Shown here one piece after another: positions 34,667 through 55,775 of a stretch of DNA of 64,000 nt. The stretch comes from Streptomyces rapamycinicus NRRL 5491 (lineage in GTDB: Bacteria; Actinomycetota; Actinomycetes; Streptomycetales; Streptomycetaceae): NCBI RefSeq assembly GCF_024298965.1, contig NZ_CP085193.1, positions 10,664,001 through 10,728,000 of the forward strand. The letters are read 5' to 3'. Position numbers and translations under genes: made by a program. Below the pieces are notes generated by a model, which did not search any database, was not told where the DNA came from, and worked only from the letters and a program-made list of their open reading frames with translations. Every line of letters begins with the position of its first letter. The first letter of the stretch is position 1.

Positions 34667-37600
34667 GTGAGCCGTTCTGGAATGACCCCGGACGAACTGC
34701 GGGAACGTCTGGCTCCGCTGCCGCGGCACGAGCGGCTGGAGATTCTCCTGGGGCTCGTCTGCGGCAAGGTCGCCGAACAACGGGAAACCGGCGACGCGCG
34801 GTCCATCGACTCCCACACTCCCTTCCGCGCGCTCGGGCTCGTCCGTGACAAGGCGGCGGCTCTGCTGCGGAGTCTCACCGCGGCCACCGGTGTTCCGCTC
34901 TCCTCCGTCGCCGTCTTCGACCACCCCGACCCCGCCGCGCTCGCCGCTCATCTGCTCACCCGGCTCACCGGCCCGGAAGAGGAACTGGCGGAAGGGGACA
35001 GGGCGGAAGAGGGCAGGGCGGAAGAGGAGAGGACGCAGCGCCGGCCGGTGGCGCGCGGCCATACCGGCGGCCGGGCCGAAGACCCCATCGCCATCGTGGG
35101 AATGGCCTGCCGCTTCCCCGCCGGGATCAACTCCCCCGAAGAGCTGTGGGAGTTCCTGGAGCAGGGCGGCGACGCCGTCACCGGCTTCCCGGTGGACCGG
35201 GAATGGGACGTGGCGGGCATCTATCACCCCGACCCGGAGCACATGGGCACCTCCTACACCCGTTCCGGAGCCTTCATCGGCGATGTCGCCGACTTCGACG
35301 CGGACTTCTTCGGCATTTCACCCCGCGAGGCCGTGGCGATGGACCCACAGCAGCGGCTGCTGCTGGAAGTGGCCTGGGAAGCGGTCGAGCGGACCGGAAT
35401 AGCGCCGCACACCCTGCGCGGCAGTTCCACCGGGGTCTTCATCGGCACCAATGAGCAGGATTATCTGTCGCGCTTCTTCCAGCCCCCCGAGGAGAGCGAG
35501 GGATTCCTCATCTCCGGCAACGCGGCGAGCGTCCTGTCCGGCCGCGTCTCCTATGTGCTGGGCCTCCAGGGCCCGTCGGTGAGCGTGGACACCGCGTGCT
35601 CCTCCTCCCTCGTGGCCCTGCACCAGGCGTGCCGGTCGCTGCGCGACGGGGAGTGCGACCTGGCGCTCGGCGGGGGAGTGGCGCTGATGTCCTCACCCGG
35701 CGCCTTCATCGACTTCGCCCGCAAACGGGTGCACGCCGCCGACGGCAGGTGCAAGGCGTACGCGGACACCGCCGACGGCACCGGCTGGGGCGAGGGAGCG
35801 GGGGTCCTCGTACTGGAGCGGCTGGCCGACGCCCGCCGCGCCGGTCACCGTGTCCTCGCCCTGATCCGCGGCACCGCGGTGAACCAGGACGGCGCCTCCA
35901 ACGGGCTCTCCGCGCCCAACGGTCCCTCCCAGGAACGGGTCATCCGGCAGGCGCTCGCCGACGGCGGGCTGGAGCCGGGCCAGGTGGACGCGGTCGACGG
36001 CCACGGCACCGGCACACCCCTCGGCGACACCATCGAGGCACAGGCGCTGCTGGCCACCTACGGCCGGGGCCGGGACGGGGACCGGCCGCTGTGGCTGGGG
36101 TCGATCAAGTCCAACATCGGGCACACCCAGGCGGCCTCGGGCGTCGCCGGCCTCATCAAGATGGTCAAGGCCATGGAGCACCGGTGGCTGCCGAAGACCC
36201 TGCACGTCGACATCCCCTCCCGGCGGGTGCCGTGGGACTCGGGCGCGGTGCGGGTACTGGACAGCGGCCGCGCCTGGCCCGAAGGCGAGGAGCCGATGCG
36301 GGCCGGCGTGTCGTCCTTCGGCGTCTCCGGGACCAACGCCCACCTCGTCGTCGAGCAGCCACCCGCGGTGACCGCCACGCGGCCCACCACCGACCCCGCG
36401 TCCGCCACCGCCGTGCCATGGGTGCTGTCCGCCCGGACCGCCGACGCCCTGCGGGAACAGGCCGGGCGGCTGCGGACCACGGTGGCGCGGAACCCCGCGG
36501 CCTCCGTCACCGACATCGGAGCGGCCCTGGCCACCACCCGCTCGCCCTTCACCCACCGGGCGGTGCTGGTCGGATCGGACCGGGAGACCTTTGAGGATCT
36601 CCTCGCCGCCGTCGAGCGTGGCGAATCCGCCGAGAACGCGGTGACCGGCGCCGCCCGCCCCGGCCTCGGCCGCCCGGTGTTCGTCTTCCCCGGACAGGGC
36701 GCCCAGTGGCCCGGGATGGGCGCCGACCTCCTCGACTGGTCGCCCGCCTTCGCCCGCGCCCTCCGTGCGGTCGACGCCGCCTTCGCACCCCTGGTGACCT
36801 GGTCGGTGGAGGACATCCTGCGGCAGCGCCCCGGCGCGCCGTCGCTGGACGAGCCCGAAGTGCTCCAGCCGGTGTCGTTCGCGGTGTCGGTGGCCCTGGC
36901 CGAGCTGTGGCGGGCCCACGGTGTGGAACCGGCCGCCGTCGTAGGCCACTCCCAGGGCGAGGTGGCCGCCGCGGTGGTCGCCGGAGCCCTCGGCCTGGAG
37001 GACGCCGCCCTGATCATGGTCGTCCGCACCCGGGCCCTGATGCGGCTGCTCGGCAACGGAGCCATGGCGGCGGTGGACCTGCCCCTGGACGAGGTGGAGC
37101 GCCGGCTCGGCGGCTACGACGGCGAGATCTCGCTCGCGGCCGTCAACGGCCCCACCCAGATCACCGTCTCCGGCGCCCCCGAGGCCGTCGATGCCCTGCT
37201 GGCGGAGGTGCGCGCGGAAGGCGTCCGGGTGCGCAAGATCCGCGGCGCCGCCGCCGCGGGCCACTCCGCGCAGGTCGAGGCGTTGCGCGAGGAACTGGTC
37301 TCGGGACTGGCCGCCGTGACGCCGCGTTCGACGCATATCCCGTTCTACTCCTCGGTGACCGGGGAGCCGGTGGACACCGCGCGGCTGGACGCCGGGTACT
37401 GGTACGACAACGCCCGCCGGACCGTGCGCTTCGACCTGGCCGTACGGGCCGCGATGGCCGAGGGGCACACGGCGTTCCTGGAGGCCGGTCCGCATCCGCT
37501 CCTCACCGCGGCCGTCCAGGACCTGGCGTTCGACGCCCGGGTCGCGGCGGTGGCCGCCGGCTCGCTGCGCCGGAACGAGGACGGCCCCATGTGCTTCCGG

Positions 37601-40600
37601 CGCGCCGCCGCCGAGTTCTACGCGGCCGGGGTCGACGTCGACTGGACCACGGCCTTCCCCGACCCGCCCCGCACCCGCGTGGACCTGCCCACCTACCCCT
37701 TCCAGCGGCGGCGCTTCTGGCTCAAGGCCGCGGCCGCCGGCCCGGCACCGGCGGCAGGCCCGCCGTCCGCCGCCGCGGACCCGGCACGGGATTCCTTCTG
37801 GCGCGCCGTCGAGGACGAGGACCTCACAGCGCTCACCGGTGTCCTCGGCATGGCCGGCGACGGCCGGGCCGTCGCCCTCGCGGACGCCCTCCCGGCCATG
37901 GCCACCTGGCACCGGCGCCACCGTACCGACGACTGGCGCTACCGGATCGCCTGGGAACCCCTCGGGCCGGCGCGCCCGGACCCCGCGGGGGACCGCGGCC
38001 CCTGGCTCGTGGCCGTACCGGCGGAATACGCCGAACACGCCGTCACCCGGGCCGTGGTGGACGCGGTGCGCGGGCGCACCGAGACGGTGCTGACCCTGAC
38101 GGTCGAGGCCAAGGACGACCGGGCGTCCCTCGCGGACCGGATCCATGACCTCCTTCCCGGCCAGCCGCTCTCCGGCGTGGTGTCCCTCCTCGCGCTGGAC
38201 GACGACACGCCGTCCGAGGCCGCCCCCGGCGTACCGGCGGGCACCGCGCACACCGCCGCGCTGACGCAGGCGCTCGGGGACGCGGGGACGGACGTGCCCC
38301 TGTGGCTGATCACGCGGGGCGCCGTCGCCACCGGCGACGGCGATCCGGTGACCCACCCCGTCCAGGCGCAGACCTGGGCCCTGGGCCGGGTGCTCGCCCT
38401 GGAGCACCCCGACCGGTGGGGCGGTGTGATCGACCTGCCCGCCGAGCCGGGCCCGGCCGCGGTGCGCACCCTCACCGCCCTGCTCGCCGGTGGCGACGAC
38501 GATCAGCTCGCCGTCCGGGACGCCGGTGTGTTCACCCGCCGCCTGACCCGCGCGGCGGACGCCGCGCCGGGCACCGCCGGATGGCGCCCGGACCCCGACG
38601 GCACGGTCCTCGTCACCGGTGGCACCGGTGCGCTGGCCGGTCATGTCGCCACCTGGCTGGCAGACCAGGGCGCCGGACACCTGATGCTCGCCAGCCGGCG
38701 CGGCCCCGAGGCCCCGGGCGTGGCGGAACGCGTGGCCGAGCTCAGGGCCCTCGGCGCCGAGGTCACCGTGGTCGCCTGCGACATGCGCGACCGGGAGGCG
38801 GTACGCGACCTGCTCGCCGCCGTCCCCGGGCGCCACCCGCTCACCGCCGTCGTGCACTGCGCGGGGATCGGCCGCCTTCAGGCCCTGGCCGACACCACCC
38901 CACAGGACTTCTCCGACGTCTTCGCCGCGAAGGCCGAGGGCGCGCGCCATCTGCACGAACTCACCGAGGAGATGGGCATCCGCCTGGACGCCTTCATCCT
39001 CTTCTCGGCCGTCTCCGCGGTGTGGGGCGTCGGCCGCCAGGGCCACTACGGAGCGGCCAACGCCTATCTGCTCGCGCTCGCGGAGCACCGCCGGAGCCGG
39101 GGCCTCGCCGCCACCGCGCTCGCCTGGACCGGCTGGACCGGGGGCGGTATGGCCGTGGAGGACGCCTCGCAGGAGACCCTGCGGCGGCACGGCCTGCCCG
39201 ACGGCGCCTTCGACCGCCTCGGCATGACCAAGGAGGAGGCCGCCGCCGAGACCGGAGAGCTCTGGGGGCTGCGCGGCATCGACCCGCGGACCCAGCTGGA
39301 GGTCCTGCGCACGGCTCTGGACCGCGGCGACGCGGTCACCATGGTGGCCGACGTGGACTGGGAGCGGTTCACCACCGGATACGCGTCCGCGCGCCGCCGG
39401 CCGCTGCTGGCCGGGATCCCGGAGGCGCTGGCGCTGATGGAGCGCCTCGACGGACCGGGCACCGAGCCGACCGGCGAGGGCGACGGCTCCGGCGCGCCGC
39501 AGACGCCCGAGGACTGGCAGCGCGGCCTGGCCTCCGTCACCCCGGAGGAGCAGCGGGCCCGGGTCCTGGAGCTGGTCCGCGACCGGCTCGCCGAGGTCCT
39601 TGGACACGGCTCGCCCGAGGACGTCGACCCCGACCGCCCGTTCCTCGAGATGGGCCTCGACTCCGTCTCGGCGGTCCAGCTGCGCAACCGCCTCGGCACC
39701 GCGGTGGGTCTGCGGCTGCCCGCGACCATCGCCTTCAACCACCCGACCCCGCGCGAACTCGCCGGATACGTATGGTCCAACGTGGCGCCGCCCGCCGCCG
39801 GGGCCGACGGCGCCGCGACGGAGGGCACCCCCGCCGAAGCCCCGGCCGCCGCCCCCACCACGGCGTCCGACGACACCCTGGTCCAGCTCTACAACTACGC
39901 CTGCGCCCACGGCCACGTGGACGAGGCGGTGAAGATGCTGTACGTCGCGGGACAGCTGCGCCCCGCCTACTCCGCCCCGGACGAGCCGGCCTCCCGCCCC
40001 GTACCGGTGCGTCTGGCGGAGGGCCCGGACCGGCCCTCGCTCATCTGCCTCACCCCCTACGTGGCGCCCGCGGGCGCCCACCAGTACGCGCGCTTCGCCG
40101 CGCCCTTCCGGGGCGTCCGGGATCTGTGGGCGCTCTCCCACCCCGGTTTCGCCAAGGGCGAGCAGCTCCCCGCCGACCTCGACACGCTCTTCGCCACCCA
40201 GGCGCGGACGGTGCTCGACACCGCGGGGGACACGCCGTTCGTGCTGCTCGGCTACTCCTCCGGTGGCTGGGTCGCCCACGGCACCGCGGCCCGGCTCGAG
40301 GAACTCGGCCGCCCGCCCGCCGCGGTGGTGATGCTGGACAGCTTCAGCCTGCGCCACCGCGAGGACAACCGGGTCTTCTCCACGATGATGAACCAGCACC
40401 ACGAGCGGGAGGGAGACCTGGAGGTCCCGCCCGAGGAGCTCACGGCCATGGGCCGCTACCTGCCGATGTTCCACCAGTGGAGCGACATCCCCGCCCTCTC
40501 CGTGCCCACCCTGCTGGTACGGGCCGAGGAGCAGGCCGTGCTCAACCCCGAGACCGGGGCCGTCACACCGCCGCCGGAGCACGTGGACATCACGGTTCCG

Positions 40601-40696
40601 ACCCCCGGCAACCACTACTCGATGATGCAGGAACACGCCCCGCGCACCGCCGAGGCCGTCCGGACGTGGCTGGCGGACACCTTCGCCGCCCGATGA
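34667..40696 (+). CDS. Type I polyketide synthase, single module: pseudoACP-KS-AT-KR-ACP-TE
   Basis: A 2009-aa enzyme. Residues about 47-95 are ACP-like but with the phosphopantetheine Ser replaced (LGLVRDKAA instead of GLDSVSA). KS about 135-555: DTACSSS, DGHGTGT, NIGHTQ all present. AT about 660-980: GHSQG and an AAGH substrate motif. No dehydratase; a KR at about 1300-1500 has NADPH motif TGGTGALAG and Tyr (QGHYGAANA), but the usual catalytic Ser reads Ala (LFSAVSAVWG). ACP at about 1625-1700 (MGLDSVSA) is intact. TE at the end has GYSSGG, LDSF and PGNHYS. The GTG start has CGGAG upstream. Predicted: one ethylmalonate-derived extension and TE release. Confidence 0.93.
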   Translation: MSRSGMTPDELRERLAPLPRHERLEILLGLVCGKVAEQRETGDARSIDSHTPFRALGLVRDKAAALLRSLTAATGVPLSSVAVFDHPDPAALAAHLLTRLTGPEEELAEGDRAEEGRAEEERTQRRPVARGHTGGRAEDPIAIVGMACRFPAGINSPEELWEFLEQGGDAVTGFPVDREWDVAGIYHPDPEHMGTSYTRSGAFIGDVADFDADFFGISPREAVAMDPQQRLLLEVAWEAVERTGIAPHTLRGSSTGVFIGTNEQDYLSRFFQPPEESEGFLISGNAASVLSGRVSYVLGLQGPSVSVDTACSSSLVALHQACRSLRDGECDLALGGGVALMSSPGAFIDFARKRVHAADGRCKAYADTADGTGWGEGAGVLVLERLADARRAGHRVLALIRGTAVNQDGASNGLSAPNGPSQERVIRQALADGGLEPGQVDAVDGHGTGTPLGDTIEAQALLATYGRGRDGDRPLWLGSIKSNIGHTQAASGVAGLIKMVKAMEHRWLPKTLHVDIPSRRVPWDSGAVRVLDSGRAWPEGEEPMRAGVSSFGVSGTNAHLVVEQPPAVTATRPTTDPASATAVPWVLSARTADALREQAGRLRTTVARNPAASVTDIGAALATTRSPFTHRAVLVGSDRETFEDLLAAVERGESAENAVTGAARPGLGRPVFVFPGQGAQWPGMGADLLDWSPAFARALRAVDAAFAPLVTWSVEDILRQRPGAPSLDEPEVLQPVSFAVSVALAELWRAHGVEPAAVVGHSQGEVAAAVVAGALGLEDAALIMVVRTRALMRLLGNGAMAAVDLPLDEVERRLGGYDGEISLAAVNGPTQITVSGAPEAVDALLAEVRAEGVRVRKIRGAAAAGHSAQVEALREELVSGLAAVTPRSTHIPFYSSVTGEPVDTARLDAGYWYDNARRTVRFDLAVRAAMAEGHTAFLEAGPHPLLTAAVQDLAFDARVAAVAAGSLRRNEDGPMCFRRAAAEFYAAGVDVDWTTAFPDPPRTRVDLPTYPFQRRRFWLKAAAAGPAPAAGPPSAAADPARDSFWRAVEDEDLTALTGVLGMAGDGRAVALADALPAMATWHRRHRTDDWRYRIAWEPLGPARPDPAGDRGPWLVAVPAEYAEHAVTRAVVDAVRGRTETVLTLTVEAKDDRASLADRIHDLLPGQPLSGVVSLLALDDDTPSEAAPGVPAGTAHTAALTQALGDAGTDVPLWLITRGAVATGDGDPVTHPVQAQTWALGRVLALEHPDRWGGVIDLPAEPGPAAVRTLTALLAGGDDDQLAVRDAGVFTRRLTRAADAAPGTAGWRPDPDGTVLVTGGTGALAGHVATWLADQGAGHLMLASRRGPEAPGVAERVAELRALGAEVTVVACDMRDREAVRDLLAAVPGRHPLTAVVHCAGIGRLQALADTTPQDFSDVFAAKAEGARHLHELTEEMGIRLDAFILFSAVSAVWGVGRQGHYGAANAYLLALAEHRRSRGLAATALAWTGWTGGGMAVEDASQETLRRHGLPDGAFDRLGMTKEEAAAETGELWGLRGIDPRTQLEVLRTALDRGDAVTMVADVDWERFTTGYASARRRPLLAGIPEALALMERLDGPGTEPTGEGDGSGAPQTPEDWQRGLASVTPEEQRARVLELVRDRLAEVLGHGSPEDVDPDRPFLEMGLDSVSAVQLRNRLGTAVGLRLPATIAFNHPTPRELAGYVWSNVAPPAAGADGAATEGTPAEAPAAAPTTASDDTLVQLYNYACAHGHVDEAVKMLYVAGQLRPAYSAPDEPASRPVPVRLAEGPDRPSLICLTPYVAPAGAHQYARFAAPFRGVRDLWALSHPGFAKGEQLPADLDTLFATQARTVLDTAGDTPFVLLGYSSGGWVAHGTAARLEELGRPPAAVVMLDSFSLRHREDNRVFSTMMNQHHEREGDLEVPPEELTAMGRYLPMFHQWSDIPALSVPTLLVRAEEQAVLNPETGAVTPPPEHVDITVPTPGNHYSMMQEHAPRTAEAVRTWLADTFAAR

Positions 40697-40812
40697 GCCC
40701 GCACGGGCCCGCGCTCTGTTTCCCGCGCCCCGTTTCCCGCGGTCCGCGCCCTGTCGTCCGCGGCACCTGAACACCGCACCTGAACGCAGCATGTGAATGA
40801 GGAGCCTCTTTC

Positions 40813-42060
40813 ATGGTCAAATCCCTCTACGAGCTCGGTGAACTGCCCCCGCTGGGCGAGGTCCCCCAGCAGATGTACGCCTCCCTCATCCGGCAGGATC
40901 GCTTCGGGGAGCCGGTCAAGGCGTTCCGTACCGAGGTGGTCGACGTCCCGGCCGTGGGGCCCGGCCAGGTGCTGGTCTATGTGATGGCCGCGGGCATCAA
41001 CTACAACAACGTCTGGGCCGCCAGCGGCCAGCCCGTCGACGTCATCGCCGCACGGCAGAAGTTCGGTCTCCCCGAGGACTTCCACATCGGCGGTTCGGAG
41101 GGCTCGGGGGTGGTGTGGGCGGTCGGTCCCGGTGTCCGCCACGTCCGGCCCGGAGACCAGGTGGTCCTCTCCGGAGGGCAGTGGGACGAGACGGCCGAGG
41201 ACATCCGCCTCAGCGGCGAGCCCCCGTTCTCCAGCTCCGCCCTGGCCTGGGGGTATGAGACCAACTACGGCTCCTTCGCCCAGTTCTGCCTGGTCAACGA
41301 GGTCCAGTGCCACCCCAAGCCGGAGAACCTCTCCTGGGAGGCGGCGGCCTGCTTCATGCTCTCGGCGCCCACCGCCTACCGCCAGCTCTTCGGCTGGGCG
41401 GGCAATACGGTGCGCCCCGGCGACCCGGTGCTCATCTGGGGCGGCGCGGGCGGCCTCGGCTCCAGCGCCATCCAGCTGACCCGGATGGTCGGCGGCATCC
41501 CCATCGCCGTGGTGTCCGACGACCGGCGTGCCGAGTTCTGCCTCGAACTCGGCGCCCGGGGCGTCATCAACCGCAATGACTTCGACCACTGGGGCCGGCT
41601 CCCGGACGCGGACGACGAGGAGGGCATGGCCCGCTTCCTGCGCGGCGCGCGGGCCTTCGGCAAGAAGATCTGGGAGATCCTCGGCGAGCGCGCCGCACCG
41701 AGGATCGTCTTCGAGCACAGCGGCCAGGCGACCCTGCCCACCTCCGTCTATCTGTGCGCCACCGGCGGCATGGTGGTGATCTGCGGCGGCACCTCCGGCT
41801 ACAACGGCGACATCGACCTGCGCCACCTCTGGATGCGGTCCAAGCGGCTCCAGGGCTCCCACGGCGCCAACACCCGGGAGTTCCGCGAGGTGACCAAGCT
41901 GGTGAGCGAGGGCGTCCTCGACCCGTGTCTCACCCGCTGCGACGACTTCGAGGGAGTCGGCCGGCTGCACCAGCTGATGCACGACAACACCCACCCGGGC
42001 GGCAACATGTCCGTCCTCGTCAACGCCCCCGAGCGCGGCATGAACACCCTGCCTGCCTGA
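40813..42060 (+). CDS. ccr: Crotonyl-CoA carboxylase/reductase
   Basis: A 415-aa MDR-superfamily enzyme that reductively carboxylates crotonyl-CoA (or a longer 2-enoyl-CoA) to ethylmalonyl-CoA (or alkylmalonyl-CoA). Seen: MAAGINYNNVWAASGQPVDV, GSEGSGVVWAVG, WGYETNYGSFAQF and the NADPH-binding GGAGGLGSSAIQL. These are CCR hallmarks. It directly follows the PKS, and the AT motif fits its product. Ribosome-binding site GAGGAG precedes the ATG at 40813. It is slightly shorter than the usual 445 aa. Confidence 0.93.
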   Translation: MVKSLYELGELPPLGEVPQQMYASLIRQDRFGEPVKAFRTEVVDVPAVGPGQVLVYVMAAGINYNNVWAASGQPVDVIAARQKFGLPEDFHIGGSEGSGVVWAVGPGVRHVRPGDQVVLSGGQWDETAEDIRLSGEPPFSSSALAWGYETNYGSFAQFCLVNEVQCHPKPENLSWEAAACFMLSAPTAYRQLFGWAGNTVRPGDPVLIWGGAGGLGSSAIQLTRMVGGIPIAVVSDDRRAEFCLELGARGVINRNDFDHWGRLPDADDEEGMARFLRGARAFGKKIWEILGERAAPRIVFEHSGQATLPTSVYLCATGGMVVICGGTSGYNGDIDLRHLWMRSKRLQGSHGANTREFREVTKLVSEGVLDPCLTRCDDFEGVGRLHQLMHDNTHPGGNMSVLVNAPERGMNTLPA

Positions 42061-42090
42061 TCGGGCCACCCATACGCCCAGGAGAAGACC

Positions 42091-43275: not shown

Positions 43276-43416
43276 GCCGGAACATGGACAACTCACCGCT
43301 ATCGGCGGGGCGTTGTTGGCAGCTTGTGTCCGCAACTCTTGAATCCCTTGTTCGGCCGAACGTAATGTCCTGGAGCGTCGGCCCCAACAAATGCGAAGAA
43401 GGCAGAGGAAGAGCAT

Positions 43417-43668
43417 ATGAGCGCACTTGTGCAGGAGCGCCGCGATGACATCAAGGAAATCGTCTGCGACATCCTTGAAATCGATCCGGAGGAATTGACG
43501 GACAGCAGCCTTCTGAAGGAGGACCACGACGCCGACTCCCTGCGGGCCATCGAGATCCTGGCCGCCCTGGAGAAGACGTTCGAAATCTCCATCGACCAGG
43601 CGGAGATGTCGCGCATGGTGAATCTCGACGGGATTTATGCGGTGGTCGCCGAGGCGAGCGGCAAGTAA
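43417..43668 (+). CDS. Acyl carrier protein (ACP1)
   Basis: An 83-aa discrete carrier protein with phosphopantetheine site DADSLRAIEILA at residue about 41 and the usual helix II/III pattern. A GAGGAAGAG Shine-Dalgarno precedes the ATG. It starts the type II block, just before the first ketosynthase. Sequence type (VQERRDDIKEIVCDILEID) resembles ACPs of highly reducing type II PKS. Confidence 0.92.
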   Translation: MSALVQERRDDIKEIVCDILEIDPEELTDSSLLKEDHDADSLRAIEILAALEKTFEISIDQAEMSRMVNLDGIYAVVAEASGK

Positions 43669-49047: not shown

Positions 49048-49110
49048 CGGCCGGGGCACGGACGGACGCTGACGGACCGGACGCCGACGGACCCGGAGAC
49101 ATCTGAAGCC

Positions 49111-49437
49111 ATGAACGAGTACCTGCTGATCGAAAGCGGCGGCCCGCCGGCCGGCCCGGGCAGTCACCGGTTCGCCGGCGACGCCGCCCAACTGGTGCGG
49201 CAGGGCGAGGACGTCGTGCTGCTCCTGGTCGAGAACGGCGTGGCCGGGGCGGTGCGGGGAGCCATGCCCGAACTCGACGCCCTGCTGGGAAGCGGCGGCG
49301 AGCTGTGGGTGGACGCGTTCTCCCTGCGCCAGCGGGCCGTTGACGCCGAGGATCTGGTGCCCGGCGCCCGGCTGGTGGAGATGCGGGACGTGGCGCGCAA
49401 GCTGCTGAGCCCCACGGTGCGAATGGTGTGGCACTGA
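49111..49437 (+). CDS. DsrE-like protein 1 (no Cys)
   Basis: A 108-aa DsrE/DsrF-fold protein: EYLLIESGG, then QGEDVVLLLVENGV, and LWVDAFSLRQRAV. In sulfur-relay complexes (TusBCD, DsrEFH) three such subunits assemble, and only one carries the reactive Cys. This copy contains no Cys at all, so it resembles a structural subunit. It is followed immediately by two more DsrE-like genes. The ATG lies 63 nt after the hotdog gene. Confidence 0.82.
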   Translation: MNEYLLIESGGPPAGPGSHRFAGDAAQLVRQGEDVVLLLVENGVAGAVRGAMPELDALLGSGGELWVDAFSLRQRAVDAEDLVPGARLVEMRDVARKLLSPTVRMVWH

Positions 49438-49438
49438 C

Positions 49439-49846
49439 ATGGTCTTCGCCGTCCGGCACACCGATGTGATGCTGAAACTGCTGGGCACGCCCCACCAGTC
49501 CGACCTGGTGACCAGCGCGCTCCGGCTGGCGCAGGCCCTGCTGGACGAGGGCGCCGCCGTACAGGTCTGGGCCTGCGGCGACGCCACCGCGCTCACCTGC
49601 GCCGCCTTCGGCGACAGCAAACCCGTCAACGTCGCCGAGCGCACGGTGGACCACCCCTCCACCGGCACGGTGATACGGGAACTGCTCACCGCCTACCCCG
49701 ACCGCCTGGACTGGTACGTCTGCCGCTTCTGCTGTGCGGAGCGTGGCAGGTCCGAGCAGATCTCCGAGGTGGTCAAGCGCCCGCCGAGCCAGTTCTGGCA
49801 GCACGTACGGGCCACCGACAAGGTCGTGGCGATGGGGGTCTGCTGA
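49439..49846 (+). CDS. DsrE-like protein 2 (cysteine-rich, candidate catalytic subunit)
   Basis: A 135-aa DsrE-fold protein with six Cys: VWACGDATALTCAAF, WYVCRFCCAERG, and a C-terminal MGVC. In TusD/DsrE families a conserved Cys carries persulfide; here the CRFCC motif and C-terminal Cys are candidates. Start lies 1 nt after the stop of the first. It is the middle gene of three. By analogy with TusBCD it would be the sulfur-handling subunit (inference). Confidence 0.82.
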   Translation: MVFAVRHTDVMLKLLGTPHQSDLVTSALRLAQALLDEGAAVQVWACGDATALTCAAFGDSKPVNVAERTVDHPSTGTVIRELLTAYPDRLDWYVCRFCCAERGRSEQISEVVKRPPSQFWQHVRATDKVVAMGVC

Positions 49847-49849
49847 ACC

Positions 49850-50245
49850 GTGGCCACGAACGACAACACCCTGCTGATCATCGAGCGCGCCCATCGGGGC
49901 GCGGTCGAGACCCAGTTCGCCGACACCCTGTTCTTCGTCCGTGAGCTGCACCGGCAGAGCGGCGGCCTCCATGTGGTGCTGCGCGGGCTCGCCGCCTCGT
50001 ACGCGGTGGACACCACGTACGAGGCGGCCCTGCGCATCGCCGGGCGGACGCTCGACACGCTCCCCGACCCGCGCCGGCTGCTCCGGCAACTCCTCGAAGA
50101 CGGCGCCACCGTGTTCGTGGAGGAGGCCGATCTGTCCGCGCTGGGCGCCCGCGCGCGGGAGCGGTTGCTCCCCGGAGTGCGCCTCGTGGCCGGGGCCGAG
50201 CTGGTGAGCCGCTGGTCCGACTACGAACGGGTGTGGTTCTTCTGA
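49850..50245 (+). CDS. DsrE-like protein 3 (no Cys)
   Basis: A 131-aa protein with DsrE-type pattern (NTLLIIERAHRGAVETQFAD; LHRQSGGLHVVLRGLAA; GATVFVEEADLSALG), no Cys. GTG start 3 nt after the second's stop. Together with the previous two genes it forms a DsrEFH/TusBCD-like trio embedded in a polyketide cluster; its partner in the pathway is unknown. Confidence 0.75.
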   Translation: MATNDNTLLIIERAHRGAVETQFADTLFFVRELHRQSGGLHVVLRGLAASYAVDTTYEAALRIAGRTLDTLPDPRRLLRQLLEDGATVFVEEADLSALGARARERLLPGVRLVAGAELVSRWSDYERVWFF

Positions 50246-50303
50246 CCTCCGCCCGCTCCCACCCCCATCCGCCCCCGCCCGCGCCCGAAGGAAACAACCG
50301 TCC

Positions 50304-51434
50304 ATGGTCTCCACCGACACGGCCGGCAGCCCGGTCATCTCCGCCTGGTCCGCGATCTCCCCGCTCGGGCTGGACAGCGCCGAGTTCTCCCGGGGGCTGG
50401 GCTCCGGCCGAAGGGCCGCGGTCCGGCTGGACCGCGAGGAGTGGCAGGTGCCGTATCAGGAGGCGTGCCTGGTCCCCGGCTTCGACATCCGGGGGCTGCT
50501 GGGCCGCAAGGGCACCCGCTCGATGGACCGGATCACCGGCCTGGCCGTGGTCGCCCTTGGCCGGCTGCTCGCCACCGGCGACGACGCCGGGCGGCTGCCG
50601 GGGATCGACGAGGGCACCGGCCTGGTGCTGGGCACCAGCACCGGAAGCGCCCAGAGCATGATGAACTTCACCCGGGACTCCCTGGTGGGGAGCCGCCCCT
50701 ATCTGGTCGACCCGGCGCGCTTCCCCAACACCGTGATGAACTGCGCCGCCGGGCAGTCGGCCATCTGGCACCGCCTCAAGGGCCCCAACACCACGATCGC
50801 CGGGGGCAGGGCCACCGGACTGCTGGCGCTGCGGTACGCGCTGCGGCTGCACCGGGCGGGCCGTGCGCGGACCCTGTTGTGCGGCGCGGTCGAGGAGTTC
50901 TCCACCGCCCGCGCCTGGCTCGCCTGGCACGCCCGGGGAGTCACCGGCGACGCCGGGCGGCATGACGCCGTCCTCGGCGAGGGCGCCGCGGTGTGGCTGC
51001 TCGAGGATGCCGAGGACGCCCGGGCCCACGGCCGGCGCGGTATCGCGGAGGTCATGGGGCTGGAGTTCGGCTTCGCCGAGGACCACTCGGCGATCCGGCC
51101 GGTGCTGGCGAACTGTCTGCGCCGGCTGCTGGACCGGTCGGGCCTCGCCGCGGACGGCATCGACGCCCTCGCCGACACCCAGTTGGCCGGGCCGGACGGC
51201 GACGCGGAGCGCGCCGCCGTCGCCGAGGTGCTCGGCACCCGCCTTCCGCCCCGGGTGGCCTGCGCCGATTCCATCGGCGACACGTTCGCGGCCTCCGCCG
51301 CCTTCCAGATCGCCGCGGTGCTCGCCCGCGCCGGATCCGGGGAGGCCGACGCCGGGGCCCGGACCGTCCTGATCACTTCCGCCGAGGCGAACGGGATGGT
51401 CGGAGCCGCCCTGCTGAGGCTCGCAGGTTCATGA
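50304..51434 (+). CDS. Ketosynthase-like protein without active Cys (KS4)
   Basis: A 376-aa KS-fold protein. The nucleophile site reads IAGGRATGLLAL, so the Cys aligns with Arg; the HGTGT and GHS motifs are also absent (ADTQLAGPDGD, DSIGDTFAAS). The N-terminal part (AISPLGLDSAEFSRGL) and MNCAAGQSAIWHR are clear KS features. It is most likely a chain-length factor or scaffolding partner. It is preceded by GAAGGAA. The other Cys-less KS (KS3) lies 3 kb upstream. Confidence 0.82.
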   Translation: MVSTDTAGSPVISAWSAISPLGLDSAEFSRGLGSGRRAAVRLDREEWQVPYQEACLVPGFDIRGLLGRKGTRSMDRITGLAVVALGRLLATGDDAGRLPGIDEGTGLVLGTSTGSAQSMMNFTRDSLVGSRPYLVDPARFPNTVMNCAAGQSAIWHRLKGPNTTIAGGRATGLLALRYALRLHRAGRARTLLCGAVEEFSTARAWLAWHARGVTGDAGRHDAVLGEGAAVWLLEDAEDARAHGRRGIAEVMGLEFGFAEDHSAIRPVLANCLRRLLDRSGLAADGIDALADTQLAGPDGDAERAAVAEVLGTRLPPRVACADSIGDTFAASAAFQIAAVLARAGSGEADAGARTVLITSAEANGMVGAALLRLAGS

Positions 51435-51450
51435 CCCCGTGCGCCATGTC

Positions 51451-51510
51451 CGATGGCGAACCGCACTCGATGGCGAACCGCAACTCGACGCGAACCTCAA
51501 CCGATGGAGA
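51451..51510 (+). repeat. Short imperfect tandem repeat upstream of ACP2
   Basis: CGATGGCGAACCGCACT (51451-51467), CGATGGCGAACCGCAACT (51468-51485) and weaker copies follow, filling the 87-nt gap between KS4 and ACP2. Origin by slippage is likely; no regulatory role is evident. It contains in-frame ATGs that could extend ACP2 upstream, but the canonical start is 51522. Confidence 0.6.
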
Positions 51511-51521
51511 GGCGAGGCACG

Positions 51522-51785
51522 ATGCCCGACACTCAACCGACCCCCCTCGACCTGGAAGACCTGCGGCGCACCATCGCCGAGGTGTTCTGCGTGGACCCGG
51601 GCGAGGTGACCGACGAAACCCGCTTCGTGGAGGATCTGGGCGGCGATTCGCTGCTGGCGCTCGAGGTGATCGTCGCCCTGGAGAAGAAGTACACCGTGCG
51701 GTTCGCGGAGTCGGATGTGCGCGCGCTGACCACGCTGCCACGGACCTACGACGTGCTCGCGGACAAGCTCGGAGCCCACGGATGA
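51522..51785 (+). CDS. Acyl carrier protein (ACP2)
   Basis: An 87-aa carrier protein with phosphopantetheine site LGGDSLLALEVI and a typical acidic helix I. GGAGAGG lies before the ATG at 51522; upstream in-frame ATGs sit in repeats and are not preferred. Overlaps DH1 by ATGA. Second carrier of the type II set; its specific role (chain vs starter) is unknown. Confidence 0.9.
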   Translation: MPDTQPTPLDLEDLRRTIAEVFCVDPGEVTDETRFVEDLGGDSLLALEVIVALEKKYTVRFAESDVRALTTLPRTYDVLADKLGAHG

Positions 51786-52168
51786 GCCCGGTGTGCACTC
51801 CGGTTGCGGGCCGGATCGAGTACGGCACGGCCCCGGACGGGACCACACGCGTATCGATGACCGTCGGGCCCGAGGAGCCGGTGTTCCCCGGCCACTACCC
51901 CGGGTTCCCGATCTTCCCCGGCGTCTGCGTCATCGAGTTCCTGCACCGCGGAGCGCTGGCCACCGCCCCCGGACCGGACCGCGCCTGGGCCCTGTCCGGC
52001 ATCGAGAGCGCGCGGTTCATGAACCCCGTCCTCCCCGGCGACACGCTCACCGCCGATCTGACCTGGCGCCGCGACGACGCGGGCGGGCGCTGCTCCGCCT
52101 CGGTCACCGGCCCGCGCGGCACCATCGCCCGGATCGCCCTCCGCTTCGAGGCCGAGGGGGCGCGGTGA
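51782..52168 (+). CDS. FabZ-like 3-hydroxyacyl-ACP dehydratase (DH1)
   Basis: A 128-aa hotdog dehydratase: VFPGHYPGFPIFPGVCVIEFL contains the catalytic His (GHYP) and the conserved Glu (IEF) of FabA/FabZ. ATGA-coupled to ACP2 and GTGA-coupled to DH2. Paired dehydratases of this kind in polyene systems act as a heterodimer to install trans double bonds. Confidence 0.88.
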   Translation: MSPVCTPVAGRIEYGTAPDGTTRVSMTVGPEEPVFPGHYPGFPIFPGVCVIEFLHRGALATAPGPDRAWALSGIESARFMNPVLPGDTLTADLTWRRDDAGGRCSASVTGPRGTIARIALRFEAEGAR

Positions 52169-52674
52169 GCGAGACGTCCGCCGGTGCCGCCGAACTCAAG
52201 CGACGGCTTCCGCACCGACACCCGATGCTGCTGCTCGACCGGGTCGTCCAGGTGGAGCCCGGCGCGCGGCTCACCGCCCGGAAGGCCGTCACCTGCAACG
52301 AGCCCTGGTACGAGCGCCTCGCCGACGACGCCGCCGAACGGGACCACGACTACCCGGCGGTGCTGCTCGTCGAGTCCTGCTGCCAGGCCGCGGGCCTGCT
52401 CGCCACCTGGGACGCCCCGGTGCCCGACGCGCGGGGCGGTCGCGTGATGCTGTTCGGCGGCATCTCGGGTGTCCGGTTCACCGGGCGGGTGCGCCCGGGC
52501 GATGTGGTGGAACACCAGGTGCGGCTGACCCGGAGCTTCGCGGACACCGTGATCTTCGAGGGGCGGAGCACGGTCGGGGACGAGACCGTCATGGAGATCG
52601 AACAGCTGGTCATCGCGTTCCGGCCGGGATCCGGGCTGGCCACGGCCACCCCGGCCACGGCGGACCGGGCTTGA
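52165..52674 (+). CDS. FabZ-like dehydratase (DH2), divergent active site
   Basis: A 169-aa hotdog protein: LPHRHPMLLLDRVVQVEPG at the N-terminus and DHDYPAVLLVESCCQAAGLL where FabZ has GHFPxxPxMPGVLxxE. The loop is about five residues shorter, and the His may be at DHDY, but the alignment is uncertain. Probably the second member of a DH1/DH2 pair with reduced or altered activity, as in other polyene systems. Confidence 0.83.
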   Translation: MSETSAGAAELKRRLPHRHPMLLLDRVVQVEPGARLTARKAVTCNEPWYERLADDAAERDHDYPAVLLVESCCQAAGLLATWDAPVPDARGGRVMLFGGISGVRFTGRVRPGDVVEHQVRLTRSFADTVIFEGRSTVGDETVMEIEQLVIAFRPGSGLATATPATADRA

Positions 52675-52689
52675 GGGGAGACGGACGAC

Positions 52690-53433
52690 ATGACCGGCAC
52701 CGACAACCGGGTGGCCGTGGTCACCGGTGGTACGCGTGGCATCGGACGGGCCACGGTGCTGCGCCTGGCGCGCGAGGGGTACGACGTGGCGTTCTGCCAC
52801 GCCTCACCCGATCCGGAGCCCGGCGCACTGCTGGCGAAGGAGGTCGAGGCGCTGGACCGGCGGGCGATGGCCCTGCGGACCGATGTCTCGGACGCGGAGG
52901 AGGTGCGCCGGTTCATGGTCGCCGTCCAGGAGGAGTTCGGCCCCGTCGACGTCACGGTCACCTCCGCGGGCATCGTCCGCGACAATCCGCTGCTCCTCAT
53001 GAAGGACGAGGAGTGGCACCAGGTCCTGGACACCAACCTCGACGGCACCTACCACGTGTGCCGTGCGGCCGTCTTCGAGATGATGAAGCGCCGGCGGGGC
53101 TGCATCGTGAACATCTCCTCGGTCGCCGGAGTCCACGGACACCCCACCCAGACCAACTACTCGGCCTCCAAGGCCGGGATCATCGGGTTCACCAAGGCGC
53201 TGGCCAAGGAGGTCGGCAGGTACGGCATCCGCGCCAACGTGGTGGCACCCGGATTCATCGAGACCGACATGACCGCCGCGCTGGCCGACAGCGCCCGCGC
53301 GGACGCCGCGAAGAAGATCCCGCTGCAGCGCTTCGGACGCCCCGAAGAGGTCGCGGACATGGTCGCGTACCTGGCCTCGGCCGAGTACGTGACCGGAAGC
53401 GTGCTGCAGATCGACGGCGGCATCGTCATCTGA
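52690..53433 (+). CDS. 3-oxoacyl-ACP reductase (FabG-type)
   Basis: A 247-aa classical SDR: NADPH motif TGGTRGIGRAT, NNAG-equivalent TSAGIVRD, catalytic NISSVAGVHG (Ser) and YSASKAGIIG (Tyr-Lys), and C-terminal GSVLQIDGG. It reduces the beta-keto group in the discrete polyene-forming cycle. It is 15 nt after DH2. No enoyl reductase is found nearby, which fits production of conjugated double bonds. Confidence 0.93.
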   Translation: MTGTDNRVAVVTGGTRGIGRATVLRLAREGYDVAFCHASPDPEPGALLAKEVEALDRRAMALRTDVSDAEEVRRFMVAVQEEFGPVDVTVTSAGIVRDNPLLLMKDEEWHQVLDTNLDGTYHVCRAAVFEMMKRRRGCIVNISSVAGVHGHPTQTNYSASKAGIIGFTKALAKEVGRYGIRANVVAPGFIETDMTAALADSARADAAKKIPLQRFGRPEEVADMVAYLASAEYVTGSVLQIDGGIVI

Positions 53434-53446
53434 GGAAAGGCCGGCC

Positions 53447-54178
53447 ATGCCCCGGAGGGACCGTACGCCCCGCTTCTACTTCTCCCTGCGCAGCCCGTAC
53501 TCCTGGCTCGCCTACCGCCAACTGCGCGACGAACACCCGGAGGTGGCCGACGCCATCACCTGGCGGCCCTTCTGGGAGCCGGACGCCCGCAGCCTGCTGA
53601 TGCTGGAAAAGGCGGGCGGCGGCTTCCCGTACGTCGGCATGTCCCGCGCCAAGCACCTCTACATCCTCCAGGACGTGCGCCGGCTGTGCTCCGAGCGCGG
53701 GCTCGAGCCCGCGTGGCCGGTCGACCGGGACCCGGTGTGGGAGGTCCCGCATCTGGCCCATCTCGCCGCGGTGGACGAGGGGAAGGGCCCGGAGTTCATC
53801 GAACGCGTCTACCGGGCCCGCTGGGAGGAGGGCAGGGACATCTGCGCACCCGCCACCATCGCGGAGGTGGCCGCCGAACTGGGGCTGCCCGAGGACCGCC
53901 TGGCCGGTGCCGCGGACGACGACGAACTGCGGGTACGCGGGGTCGAGGCGCTGTCGCGGGTCGACGCGGACGGCGTGTTCGGCGTGCCGTTCTTCATCCA
54001 TGGCTTCCACAAGTTCTGGGGTGTGGACCGGCTCGCCCCGTTCATCGCGTCGGTGACGGGCGCCGCGCCGGGGCGGCCGGTCACCGAACCGCCCGACGCC
54101 GGGCCGTCGGACACCGCACCGCCCGCCGCGGCGCCGGGCCGGGGCGGAGACCAGGGGCACGCGGGCGGCTGCGGCTGA
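53447..54178 (+). CDS. HCCA-isomerase/kappa-GST-like (DsbA-fold) protein with Cys tail
   Basis: A 243-aa protein of the 2-hydroxychromene-2-carboxylate isomerase family: RFYFSLRSPYSWLAYRQL near the N-terminus (active Ser position), WRPFWEPDARSLL, and ADGVFGVPFFIHG. The family does thiol-dependent cis/trans isomerisation, so E/Z change of a polyene is a reasonable role. After residue about 205 it has a Pro/Gly-rich tail ending GGCG, with a lone Cys, which is not typical of the family. Confidence 0.82.
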   Translation: MPRRDRTPRFYFSLRSPYSWLAYRQLRDEHPEVADAITWRPFWEPDARSLLMLEKAGGGFPYVGMSRAKHLYILQDVRRLCSERGLEPAWPVDRDPVWEVPHLAHLAAVDEGKGPEFIERVYRARWEEGRDICAPATIAEVAAELGLPEDRLAGAADDDELRVRGVEALSRVDADGVFGVPFFIHGFHKFWGVDRLAPFIASVTGAAPGRPVTEPPDAGPSDTAPPAAAPGRGGDQGHAGGCG

Positions 54179-54209
54179 CCGCGACCCGACGATCGGCGAA
54201 GAGGAACCG

Positions 54210-55775
54210 ATGAAGGAACAGAACCTTGGCTCGGCGGCGGCGGTCCACTACTGGGCCCGAACCACCGGGGACACCACCGCCATCGTGTACGAGTCCACCC
54301 GGATCAGCTACGGGACGCTGTCCGCCCGGGTGCGCTCGCTGGCGGCGGCCCTGTCCGACGGCGGGGTGCGCACCGGCGACCGGATCGCCTTCCTGGGGCG
54401 CAACGGCCCGGCGCTGCTGGCGGCGGCGCTGGCCGCGGCCCACCTCGGAGCGGTCTTCGTACCGCTCAACGTCCGGCTGGCCGGAAGCGAGGTGGCCCAC
54501 CTCCTCGGCGACTGCCGCCCCCACACCCTCATCGCCGAGGACGCCGGCCGGCCCCTGGTCGACGGCATCGCGGACACCGTGCCCGTCCAGCGGTTCCTGC
54601 TCGCCGACGGCGGCCCCGCCGCTTCCGGGACGCACCCTCGTTGGAAACCACTGCCGATGCCGGAGCCTACGGAAACGGCGGACGCCGCGCCGCCGGTCGC
54701 GGTCCGGCCCACCGACCCCGCGGTCATCATGTACACCTCGGGCACCACAGGGCGGCCCAAGGGGGCGGTGCTCACCCACGGCAATCTGTGGTGGAACCAC
54801 CTCAACACCGCCGCCGTGATCCGCACCCGGCTGGGCGACCCCACCCTGGTGCTCGCGCCCATGTTCCACATCGCCGGGCTCAGCGGCTTCACCCTGGGCT
54901 CCCTCATGCAGGGCGGGACCCTGGTGATCCGGCGCTCCTTCTCTCCCGAGCAGTGCCTGGAGGACCTGGTCGAGCACCGGGTGGCCAATCTCATCGCGGT
55001 GCCGACGATGTTCGCGGCCATCGCCGCGACGGCCGGTTTCCCGCGCGCCGACCTCTCCGCGCTGCGCGCCGCGATCGTCGGCGGGGCCCCGGTGCCGCCC
55101 ACCCTGGTCCGCGACTACCTCGCCCACGGCATCCCCCTGCACCAGGCATGGGGGATGACCGAGACCGCGCCACTGGCCAGCCATCTGCCGACCGAACTGG
55201 TGGCCGCCCACCCCGACGCGGCCGGATTCCCGCTGCCCCACACCGAGATACGGCTGGTCGATCCGGCCACCGGCGGTGTGGTCACCGAGCCGGAGGCGGC
55301 CGCGGAGATCTGCGTCCGGGGGCCCAATGTCTTCGCGGGCTACTGGAACAACCCGGAGGCGACCGGGCGGGTGCTGGACGACGCCGGATGGTTCCGGTCC
55401 GGGGACATCGGCCGCGTCGACAAGAACGGTCTGCTGTTCATCGTGGACCGGCTCAAGGACGTCATCATCAGCGGCGGGGAGAACATCTACCCCGCCGAAC
55501 TGGAACGGCATCTGGCCGAGTACCCCGGCGTGCGCGAGGTGGCCGTGGTCGGGGTGGAGCATCCGCGGTGGGGCGAGAGCCCGGTGGCGGTGCTGTGCCA
55601 GGACGGGGACGGCCGGGCCACCCTGGAGGAGATCCGGGCGTTCATCGGGCAACGGCTGGCCCGGTACAAGCTCCCCACGGCCGTTCACCATGTCGACGCA
55701 CTGCCCCGGAATGGCAGCGGAAAGGTGGACAAAGCCGCCTTGCGCAGCCAGGTGCCCGGCGGACAGCGGCCATGA
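54210..55775 (+). CDS. AMP-dependent acyl-CoA/acyl-ACP synthetase
   Basis: A 521-aa ANL-superfamily ligase: MYTSGTTGRPKGAV (A3), core QAWGMTETA (A5), WFRSGDIGRVD and catalytic Lys near NGSGKVDKAAL (A10). It activates a carboxylic acid with ATP; the acid could be a starter for the type II set or the finished polyene. AGAGGAA precedes the ATG. It is the last structural gene of the cluster strand. Confidence 0.92.
   Translation: MKEQNLGSAAAVHYWARTTGDTTAIVYESTRISYGTLSARVRSLAAALSDGGVRTGDRIAFLGRNGPALLAAALAAAHLGAVFVPLNVRLAGSEVAHLLGDCRPHTLIAEDAGRPLVDGIADTVPVQRFLLADGGPAASGTHPRWKPLPMPEPTETADAAPPVAVRPTDPAVIMYTSGTTGRPKGAVLTHGNLWWNHLNTAAVIRTRLGDPTLVLAPMFHIAGLSGFTLGSLMQGGTLVIRRSFSPEQCLEDLVEHRVANLIAVPTMFAAIAATAGFPRADLSALRAAIVGGAPVPPTLVRDYLAHGIPLHQAWGMTETAPLASHLPTELVAAHPDAAGFPLPHTEIRLVDPATGGVVTEPEAAAEICVRGPNVFAGYWNNPEATGRVLDDAGWFRSGDIGRVDKNGLLFIVDRLKDVIISGGENIYPAELERHLAEYPGVREVAVVGVEHPRWGESPVAVLCQDGDGRATLEEIRAFIGQRLARYKLPTAVHHVDALPRNGSGKVDKAALRSQVPGGQRP

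What the first reader, a model, noticed from the sequence alone, without database searches (positions are those of the whole stretch)
34667..55775. Hybrid cluster: one-module type I PKS plus a complete discrete, highly reducing type II PKS
The plus strand carries a single-module PKS with TE, CCR and P450, followed by an ACP/KS/KS/CLF-like/hydrolase/hotdog/DsrE x3/KS-like/ACP/DH/DH/KR/isomerase/ligase set. Two ACPs, two DHs, a KR, KSs, a KS-like factor and a ligase without an enoyl reductase mirror aryl-polyene and ishigamide-type polyene machinery (established families). Coupling it to a one-module ethylmalonate PKS would yield a conjugated polyene ending in an ethyl-branched, TE-released unit (inference). 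I do not recognise a known compound from this gene set.
Basis: partly seen in the sequence, partly recalled or inferred. Interest (0 to 1): 0.85.

Follow-up and report, generated by a model that had tools for sequence, protein, structure and literature searches.

The report
Hybrid type II/type I polyketide cluster
A Streptomyces gene cluster appears to join two kinds of polyketide factory, a set of loose enzymes of the kind that builds benzene-tipped unsaturated chains and a single giant enzyme module that probably adds one branched unit and releases the product, which would be a new combination of known machinery.

Summary
(1) The discrete set is best read as a cinnamoyl-type (benzene-forming) highly reducing type II PKS, not a linear aryl-polyene or ishigamide system: two KS/CLF pairs, two DHs, KR, no ER, a DsbA-fold isomerase, paired LuxR genes, and matching gene order. 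(2) 'Ethyl' is doubtful: the CCR is nearest to AntE and filipin-like CCRs, with Gly at a pocket-widening position, and the AT and TE resemble terminal modules of filipin-like clusters, so a longer alkylmalonyl unit is more likely. (3) The single type I module is a domain mosaic relative to two modules of Saccharopolyspora elongata, with an N-terminal ACP-like domain lacking its serine. (4) Coupling is supported, not proved: CCR-PKS-P450 lies beside the cassette in 5 of 67 relatives (all close Streptomyces), and S. elongata holds both halves plus NRPS genes, perhaps as one cluster. (5) A DsrE/TusBCD-like trio with three invariant cysteines marks a subset (17 of 47 KS1-bearing Streptomyces genomes) and is unexplained. 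Coronafacic acid is a precedent for a type II-like set feeding a type I PKS. Product unknown. New variant of a known kind.

The parts
32200..34500 (-). BTAD-type (SARP-like) regulator with NB-ARC match
   Evidence: Pfam BTAD 9e-40; 93% identical and upstream of the PKS in S. iranensis and S. endocoffeicus
34667..40696 (+). Type I PKS: ACP-like N-terminus without Ser, KS-AT-KR-ACP-TE
   Evidence: Pfam/NCBIfam; mosaic relative to S. elongata modules A and B; AT motif AAGH
34667..35011 (+). Pseudo-ACP: PP-binding match, usual GxDSL serine absent (GLVRDKA)
   Evidence: Pfam PP-binding 4e-5; serine also absent in S. iranensis and S. endocoffeicus, S. antioxidans P0027 and S. elongata PKS-A
40813..42060 (+). 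Enoyl-CoA carboxylase/reductase (CCR), AntE-like, Gly351
   Evidence: TIGR01751 575 bits; AntE 4y0k 661 bits; Gly at the AntE V350 position
42091..43275 (+). Cytochrome P450
   Evidence: Pfam p450 6e-34; 60% to the P450 after the S. elongata PKSs
43417..43668 (+). ACP1
   Evidence: Pfam PP-binding 8e-11; Ser in 46 of 46 aligned
43719..44963 (+). KS1, inferred partner of KSL
   Evidence: 6kxd_A ketosynthase 546 bits; Cys in 47 of 47 aligned
44986..46137 (+). KS2, inferred partner of CLF
   Evidence: KS domains; Cys in 48 of 48 aligned
46134..47156 (+). CLF, no catalytic Cys
   Evidence: Pfam ketoacyl-synt 4e-15; not Cys in 48 of 49 aligned, one unreadable
47153..48040 (+). alpha/beta hydrolase, possible release or editing
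   Evidence: Pfam Abhydrolase_6 1e-18; in 36 of 67 loci
48037..49047 (+). Double hotdog with FatA/acyl-ACP-thioesterase-like fold
   Evidence: 4HBT_2 6e-6; model pLDDT 81, best PDB matches FatA-type thioesterases, with large rmsd
49111..49437 (+). D1, DsrH/TusB-like
   Evidence: weak DsrE 0.006 and TusB 0.08 matches; in 66 of 67 D2-found loci
49439..49846 (+). D2, DsrE/TusD-like; Cys46, Cys95, Cys98 invariant
   Evidence: 68 of 68 aligned; model matches YchN/DsrE/TusBCD
49850..50245 (+). D3, third trio member, no DsrE match by sequence
   Evidence: follows D1-D2 in 66 of 66 complete trios
50304..51434 (+). KSL, inferred CLF of KS1, no catalytic Cys
   Evidence: 6kxd_B 243 bits; Arg in 55 and Thr in 1 of 56 at the Cys position
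51453..51785 (+). ACP2
   Evidence: Pfam PP-binding 4e-12; Ser in 43 of 43 aligned
51782..52168 (+). Dehydratase A (FabZ-like)
   Evidence: Pfam FabA 1.5e-7
52165..52674 (+). Dehydratase B (FabZ-like)
   Evidence: Pfam FabA 8e-19
52690..53433 (+). Ketoreductase (FabG-like)
   Evidence: TIGR01830 299.2 bits, cut-off 297.75
53447..54178 (+). DsbA-fold protein, inferred cis-trans isomerase
   Evidence: Pfam DSBA 5e-16; PDB possible 2-hydroxychromene-2-carboxylate isomerase 9e-11
54210..55775 (+). Acyl-CoA ligase, seen above 50% identity only in genomes with the close CCR
   Evidence: AMP-binding 3e-91; above 50% in 5 of 67 loci
55931..57420 (+). Two adjacent LuxR-like genes
   Evidence: weak GerE/HTH matches; related genes in about half of the 67 loci

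Best explanation
A hybrid biosynthetic cluster. A cinnamoyl-type highly reducing type II PKS (KS1-KSL, KS2-CLF, KR, two DHs, ACPs) builds an unsaturated chain. The DsbA-fold isomerase sets a cis bond, which in this family leads to 6-pi ring closure and a benzene ring. The chain is freed by the FatA-like hotdog or the hydrolase and re-activated by the ligase, or passed straight from ACP, onto the KS of a single type I module. That module adds one 2-alkylmalonyl unit made by the AntE/filipin-like CCR (medium chain more likely than ethyl), its KR reduces the beta-keto group, and its TE releases an aryl-polyenyl 3-hydroxy-2-alkyl acid or lactone, tailored by the P450. Shown: gene content, catalytic motifs, conserved order, relatives. 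Inferred: pairing, ring formation, chain transfer, extender size, product.
For: Cassette order: of 67 loci found with D2, 55 hold at least 8 of 15 genes and 50 of these are strictly collinear; the order agrees with the gene letters and names given for gla and epc in PMC9381841 and PMC9321520. In 295 Streptomyces genomes, 46 of the 47 with a KS1-type KS also have the isomerase. KS1/KSL match the two chains of one solved KS complex. CCR-PKS-P450 beside the cassette in 5 of 67 loci (L011-L015). All 5 ligase-bearing loci lie in genomes holding the close CCR (75-99%; broken into pieces in L013's genome), while the 3 cassette genomes without ligase that I tested have best CCRs of 41-42%. S. elongata holds cassette + ligase on one contig and CCR-PKS-PKS-P450 on another, with an exact 127-bp end overlap. 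CCR Gly351 and AntE/filipin-like kinship, AT and TE kinship. FatA-like HOT model.
Against: Adjacency to the type I genes is seen only in one group of close species, so it could be chance neighbourhood. In S. elongata NRPS genes stand between the halves, and the 127-bp overlap is a repeat that also occurs inside the second contig. No transfer element between type II ACPs and the type I KS was identified; the pseudo-ACP cannot carry a chain, and it scores slightly better against the working ACP of S. elongata PKS-B (39%) than against PKS-A's own pseudo-ACP (37%). AntE-clade CCRs occur in 27 of 295 Streptomyces genomes, the window's own included. On extender size: a solved octenoyl-CoA enzyme (4a0s) is the lowest of the ten CCR matches (235 bits), a crotonyl-CoA enzyme (4gi2) scores 407, and 9kva, which has the same Gly, is named putative crotonyl-CoA reductase (504 bits). 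The six filipin-like CCRs have Tyr, not Gly, and their P450s are only 35-40% identical to the window's.
Confidence: 0.6

Rival explanations
1. Two separate pathways side by side: a free cinnamoyl-type acid from the type II set, and an unrelated small alkyl-branched product from the type I module, which primes itself from an acyl-CoA.
For: The cassette is without the type I set in 62 of 67 loci as far as the DNA held shows; the HOT model is FatA-like, suiting release of free acids; relatives are reported to give free acids (PMC9381841 and PMC10054270, passages).
Against: The ligase-bearing cassette and the CCR-PKS-P450 set co-occur in two genera in different gene orders; the ligase is above 55% identity in only 1 of 295 Streptomyces genomes, the window's own.
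Confidence: 0.2
2. One reading: a linear conjugated polyene (ishigamide/aryl-polyene type) ending in an ethyl-branched unit.
For: No ER; KS1/KSL nearest, among solved structures, to the 6kxd KS complex (recalled as Iga11-Iga12); a CCR is present; some CCR results fit a crotonyl enzyme (4gi2, 9kva).
Against: DsbA-fold isomerase and cinnamoyl gene order (PMC6510318 passages); CCR Gly351 and AntE/filipin-like kinship.
Confidence: 0.08
3. The type II product is the source of the extender, not the starter: HOT frees the aryl-enoic acid, the ligase makes the enoyl-CoA, the CCR turns it into an aryl-alkyl-malonyl-CoA, and the AT loads it.
For: Ligase and this CCR co-occur in 5 of 5 ligase-bearing genomes; Gly351 matches AntE V350G, reported to supply longer and bulkier units (PMC6117356 passages, PMC6164871 section 7); AT motif AAGH.
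Against: It leaves the starter of the type I KS unexplained; filipin's CCR is described as a putative 2-octenoyl-CoA enzyme (PMC4527110 passages); in S. elongata the cassette stands beside NRPS genes, which suggests an acyl-starter role.
Confidence: 0.12

Closest known systems
Cinnamoyl-type highly reducing type II PKSs (gla globisporamic acid, ysf youssoufene, kcn kitacinnamycin, epc epoxinnamide, sky skyllamycin, mbg o-dialkylbenzene)
   Same: KS/CLF pairs, KR, DHs, ACP, isomerase, no ER; for gla also two adjacent LuxR genes and gene order (passages of PMC9381841, PMC9321520, PMC6510318, PMC13311259)
   Different: Here with a one-module type I PKS, CCR, P450 and a dedicated ligase; the relatives read about end in free acids or NRPS peptides. 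No direct sequence comparison with them was possible
Ishigamide (iga) polyene type II PKS
   Same: KS1 and KSL are nearest, among solved structures, to the two chains of 6kxd (identity as Iga11-Iga12 recalled)
   Different: iga lacks the isomerase according to PMC6510318; linear polyene amide
Coronafacic acid cluster (cfa1-5 type II-like set plus type I PKS)
   Same: A type II-like set hands its product to a downstream type I PKS (PMC10698177, sections 4 and 9); a CCR in it is recalled. This is a precedent for the relay
   Different: Single C2 elongation and a five-membered ring; AmcF/G/E models score far below cut-off here; no KR/DH-driven polyene cycle
Filipin last extension step (pteA5/B/C/D; fil)
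   Same: CCR 73-76%, terminal AT 56-57% (five of six loci printed) and TE 51-53% identical to filipin-like loci L099-L104; PKS(TE)-CCR-P450-P450 order (PMC4527110 passages). That those loci make filipin was not tested
   Different: Filipin is a multi-modular macrolide; here one module; CCR residue 351 Gly, not Tyr
Saccharopolyspora elongata NRPS-PKS genes (uncharacterised)
   Same: Same cassette with ligase (69%), CCR 75%, PKS-A with a serine-less N-terminal ACP, P450 60%
   Different: NRPS genes and two type I modules; the window has one mosaic module and no NRPS in the 64 kb
DsrEFH / TusBCD sulfur relay
   Same: DsrE fold of the D2 model; three adjacent small genes
   Different: Sits in a PKS operon; very distant in sequence; substrate unknown

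Membership tests
Cinnamoyl-type highly reducing type II PKS | Two or three KS/CLF pairs, CLFs lacking Cys | tested here: met
   KS1/KS2 Cys 47 of 47 and 48 of 48; CLF not Cys in 48 of 49 (one unreadable), KSL not Cys in 56 of 56; pairing itself inferred
Cinnamoyl-type highly reducing type II PKS | Dedicated cis-trans isomerase | tested here: met
   DSBA 5e-16, isomerase PDB match; present in 46 of 47 KS1-bearing genomes of 295; not compared directly with YsfG or Sky27
Cinnamoyl-type highly reducing type II PKS | KR and DHs, no ER | tested here: met
Cinnamoyl-type highly reducing type II PKS | Gene order and adjacent LuxR pair as in gla | tested here: met
   order agrees with the letters in PMC9381841, 50 of 55 D2-found loci collinear; LuxR pair at 55931-57420
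Cinnamoyl-type highly reducing type II PKS | Product has a benzene ring made by 6-pi closure | not testable with these tools
   no metabolite data
Ishigamide-type linear polyene PKS | No isomerase | tested here: not met
   isomerase present (PMC6510318 passages)
Gram-negative aryl polyene cluster | 4-hydroxybenzoate-type starter genes and outer-membrane export genes (recalled) | tested here: not met
   none among the genes scanned in the cluster
Crotonyl-CoA CCR (ethylmalonyl) | Phe at the pocket position, as in 3hzz, 4gi2 and the three other CCRs compared | tested here: not met
   Gly351; but 9kva, named putative crotonyl-CoA reductase, also has Gly
Long-chain alkylmalonyl CCR (AntE, PteB) | Clade membership and activity on longer enoyl-CoA | tested here: inconclusive
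   apart from primary-type CCRs (100/100), AntE best match; AntE and PteB were not in the tree; 4a0s (octenoyl) scores lowest; activity not testable
Cispentacin/coronafacic acid type II PKS | AmcF/AmcG/AmcE NCBIfam models above cut-off | tested here: not met
   186/325, 38/80 and 61/140 bits

The most novel reading that the evidence does not exclude
The type II aryl-polyenoyl product is made into the extender unit: the FatA-like hotdog frees it, the ligase makes its CoA ester, the wide-pocket CCR (Gly351) carboxylates it, and the single type I module installs it as a branch, giving a two-armed polyketide. I recall no precedent for a discrete type II PKS making a malonyl-type extender for a type I PKS; I did not search for one specifically.
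Probability: 0.12. Interest if true: 0.82.

Novelty: new variant of a known kind. Interest (0 to 1): 0.6.

Why it matters
If the two halves act in one pathway, a discrete polyene-forming type II PKS hands its chain to a modular type I PKS inside one compact cluster. Coronafacic acid shows that such a relay can exist for a one-step type II-like set; here it would serve an iterative, aryl-forming one, and S. elongata suggests that NRPS genes can also stand between. The pseudo-ACP, the domain mosaic and the ligase are concrete parts to test for the hand-over. Separately, a DsrE-like trio with three invariant cysteines marks a subset of these cassettes and is not mentioned in the cinnamoyl passages that I read; it is a testable candidate for part of the isomerisation, ring-closing or aromatising chemistry.

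Tried and rejected
Coronafacic-acid/cispentacin-like cluster: rejected as membership, NCBIfam scores far below cut-off. Pks13-like loading of the N-terminal ACP: rejected, the serine is absent in all five sequences seen. dN/dS of the pseudo-ACP (0.50 against S. iranensis, 0.13 against S. endocoffeicus) is too coarse to prove a function. The region search for the pseudo-ACP (249 proteins, best 120 listed) shows only two close matches (S. iranensis, S. antioxidans); the other listed ones, at 33-52%, are type I PKSs, and I saw no S. elongata entry among them. My first thought that the DsrE trio is a near-universal cassette part was wrong: the 67 loci were found with D2, so they hold it by construction; an unbiased count gives D2 in 17 of the 47 KS1-bearing genomes of 295. 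Paper searches listed no cinnamoyl type II plus type I hybrid and no DsrE protein in polyketide biosynthesis; they cover the open PubMed Central library only. antiSMASH and MIBiG were not available.
Full report
What is there. The window lies at 10.66-10.73 Mb of a single 12.47-Mb contig. The type I PKS has an ACP-like N-terminus (Pfam PP-binding 4e-5), then KS-AT-KR-ACP-TE. The phosphopantetheine serine is absent in this N-terminal domain and in those of S. iranensis and S. endocoffeicus, S. antioxidans and the first PKS of S. elongata. I call it a pseudo-ACP. It cannot carry a chain; a docking role is inference.

The discrete set is of the cinnamoyl type. A scan of the genome collection with D2 gave 67 loci. 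They hold D2 by construction, so counts within them say nothing about cassettes without the trio. 55 of the 67 hold at least 8 of 15 cassette genes; 50 of these are strictly collinear on one strand, and 39 hold 14 or more. The 5 exceptions are L038, L063 and L068 (ACP1 moved to the end) and L058 and L062 (rearranged). Of 44 loci of at least 16.8 kb, 37 hold all 11 genes that I called core. The order agrees with the gene letters and names given for gla (PMC9381841) and epc (PMC9321520), seen as passages; those passages give no sequences, so the match is by order and annotation. PMC6510318 (passages) states that the isomerase is in the skyllamycin and WS9326 clusters but not seen in the other type II PKSs compared, ishigamide among them. 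In 295 Streptomyces genomes 47 have a KS1-type KS (E up to 1e-180), 58 an isomerase (E up to 1e-40) and 46 of the 47 have both. KS1 and KSL match the two chains of 6kxd (546 and 243 bits; that this is Iga11-Iga12 is recalled), so I infer that KSL is the CLF of KS1 and the protein at 46134 that of KS2. Catalytic Cys is kept in 47 of 47 KS1 and 48 of 48 KS2 sequences; it is not Cys in 56 of 56 KSL and 48 of 49 CLF sequences, one being unreadable (window included). Ring closure is taken from the literature on relatives, not shown here.

Two unassigned parts. Among the 67 loci the trio D1-D2-D3 is complete in 66, in that order in all 66, and followed closely by KSL in 56. D2 keeps Cys46, Cys95 and Cys98 in 68 of 68 sequences. 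Its model (pLDDT 90) matches YchN, DsrEFH and TusBCD. In the 295 genomes D2 (E up to 1e-25) is in 17, and all 17 also have KS1 and the isomerase. So the trio goes with these cassettes but marks only a subset, 17 of 47. In a second setting (L026, L029-L035, L037, L046, L051) the trio sits beside a P450 without the rest of the cassette in the stretch held. The double hotdog HOT has a model (pLDDT 81) closest to FatA-type acyl-ACP thioesterases, which suits release of a free acid; rmsd values are large, so the fold, not the activity, is supported.

Coupling of the halves. The type I set lies directly beside the cassette in 5 of 67 loci (L011-L015), with CCR and P450 at 93-99%; all five are Streptomyces close to the window's host by identity. 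In L013 several genes are broken into pieces. Loci whose contigs end early could not show it. The ligase is above 50% identity in 5 of 67 loci: L011, L013, L014, L015 and L055, S. elongata; L012's contig ends before it. All five of those genomes hold the close CCR (75-99%), while three cassette genomes without the ligase (the only three tested) have best CCRs of 41-42%. Among 295 Streptomyces genomes the ligase is above 55% only in the window's own, and an AntE-clade CCR (59% or more) is in 27, own included, so the CCR alone is not rare. In S. elongata the cassette and ligase are followed by NRPS-type genes to a contig end that shares an exact 127-bp overlap with the start of a contig carrying NRPS genes, a thioesterase, CCR (75%), two PKSs and a P450 (60%). 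The 127-bp sequence also occurs elsewhere inside that second contig, so the join is probable, not proved.

The type I module. Against the two S. elongata modules, the window's KS (68 vs 64%), KR (71 vs 39%) and ACP (57 vs 51%) are nearer module A, and the AT (57 vs 45%) and TE (53%; A has none) nearer module B. The KS and ACP differences are small; the KR, AT and TE ones carry the mosaic reading. The pseudo-ACP is about equally far from A's pseudo-ACP (37%) and B's ACP (39%). Module B's KR lacks the catalytic Tyr in the alignment, while the window's KR keeps its motif residues.

The extender unit. The CCR's best solved relative is AntE (661 bits), then 9kva (504, named putative crotonyl-CoA reductase), 4gi2 (407, a crotonyl-CoA enzyme), further crotonyl-CoA reductases at 243-260, and 4a0s, an octenoyl-CoA enzyme, last at 235. 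It has Gly351 at AntE Val350. PMC6117356 (passages) and PMC6164871 (section 7) say that AntE V350G supplies longer and bulkier alkylmalonyl-CoAs; AntE itself already accepts a broad range. S. elongata and 9kva also have Gly; the three best CCRs of cassette-only genomes have Phe. Of the 26 other Streptomyces genomes with AntE-clade CCRs I took the six nearest (73-76%). [quoted passage not shown] They have Tyr at position 351, and their P450s are 35-40% identical to the window's. Their terminal ATs carry GAGHSAQVE (six of six; window AAGHSAQVE; module A FTAH); AT identity is 56-57% in the five printed and TE identity 51-53% in six. In a tree of 16 CCRs the window groups with its three close kin (99/100) in a set apart from the primary-type CCRs (100/100); the order inside that set is unresolved and two long branches are flagged. 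A longer branch is therefore more likely than ethyl, but this is inference with results on both sides.

Verdict. A new variant of a known kind: a cinnamoyl-type highly reducing type II PKS with a one-module type I PKS. Coronafacic acid (PMC10698177, sections 4 and 9 read) is a precedent for a type II-like set feeding a type I PKS. No paper on the present combination appeared in the listings. For the kcn in vitro, ysf and mbg papers I saw only citations or secondary mention.

Noticed in passing
G000:C1:7343900-7359000 (L097 3915-18981): A second cassette in the same genome, mostly 46-73% identical, with D1-D3, a third KS/CLF pair, a further reductase-like gene and a transacylase-like gene.
   Followed up: partly
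G000:C1:6614571-6623903: A third KS1-type KS (69%) and isomerase (57%) about 9 kb apart, with no D2 match in the genome near it: probably a third, trio-less cassette.
   Followed up: no
window 49111-50245: DsrE/TusBCD-like trio of unknown role; in 17 of 295 Streptomyces genomes, all 17 with KS1 and isomerase, but missing from 30 of the 47 KS1-bearing ones.
   Followed up: partly
L032 7106-13810 and L026, L029-L031, L033-L035, L037, L046, L051: Trio (with KSL in most) in another setting beside a P450; in L032 also a glycosyltransferase and an FAD amine-oxidase-like enzyme.
   Followed up: partly
L089 13051-16093 (S. elongata): O-methyltransferase, 3-hydroxyacyl-CoA dehydrogenase and acyl-CoA dehydrogenase after the PKSs, as in methoxymalonyl-ACP gene sets (recalled); may feed PKS-A, whose AT motif is FTAH.
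   Followed up: partly
L094 2376-7480 (S. elongata): Adenylation domain with luciferase-like monooxygenase and methyltransferase parts, followed by a carrier-reductase protein, right after the ligase.
   Followed up: no
L105 (S. iranensis contig 45): Another CCR (64%, Cys at position 351) beside type I PKS genes, a different cluster.
   Followed up: no
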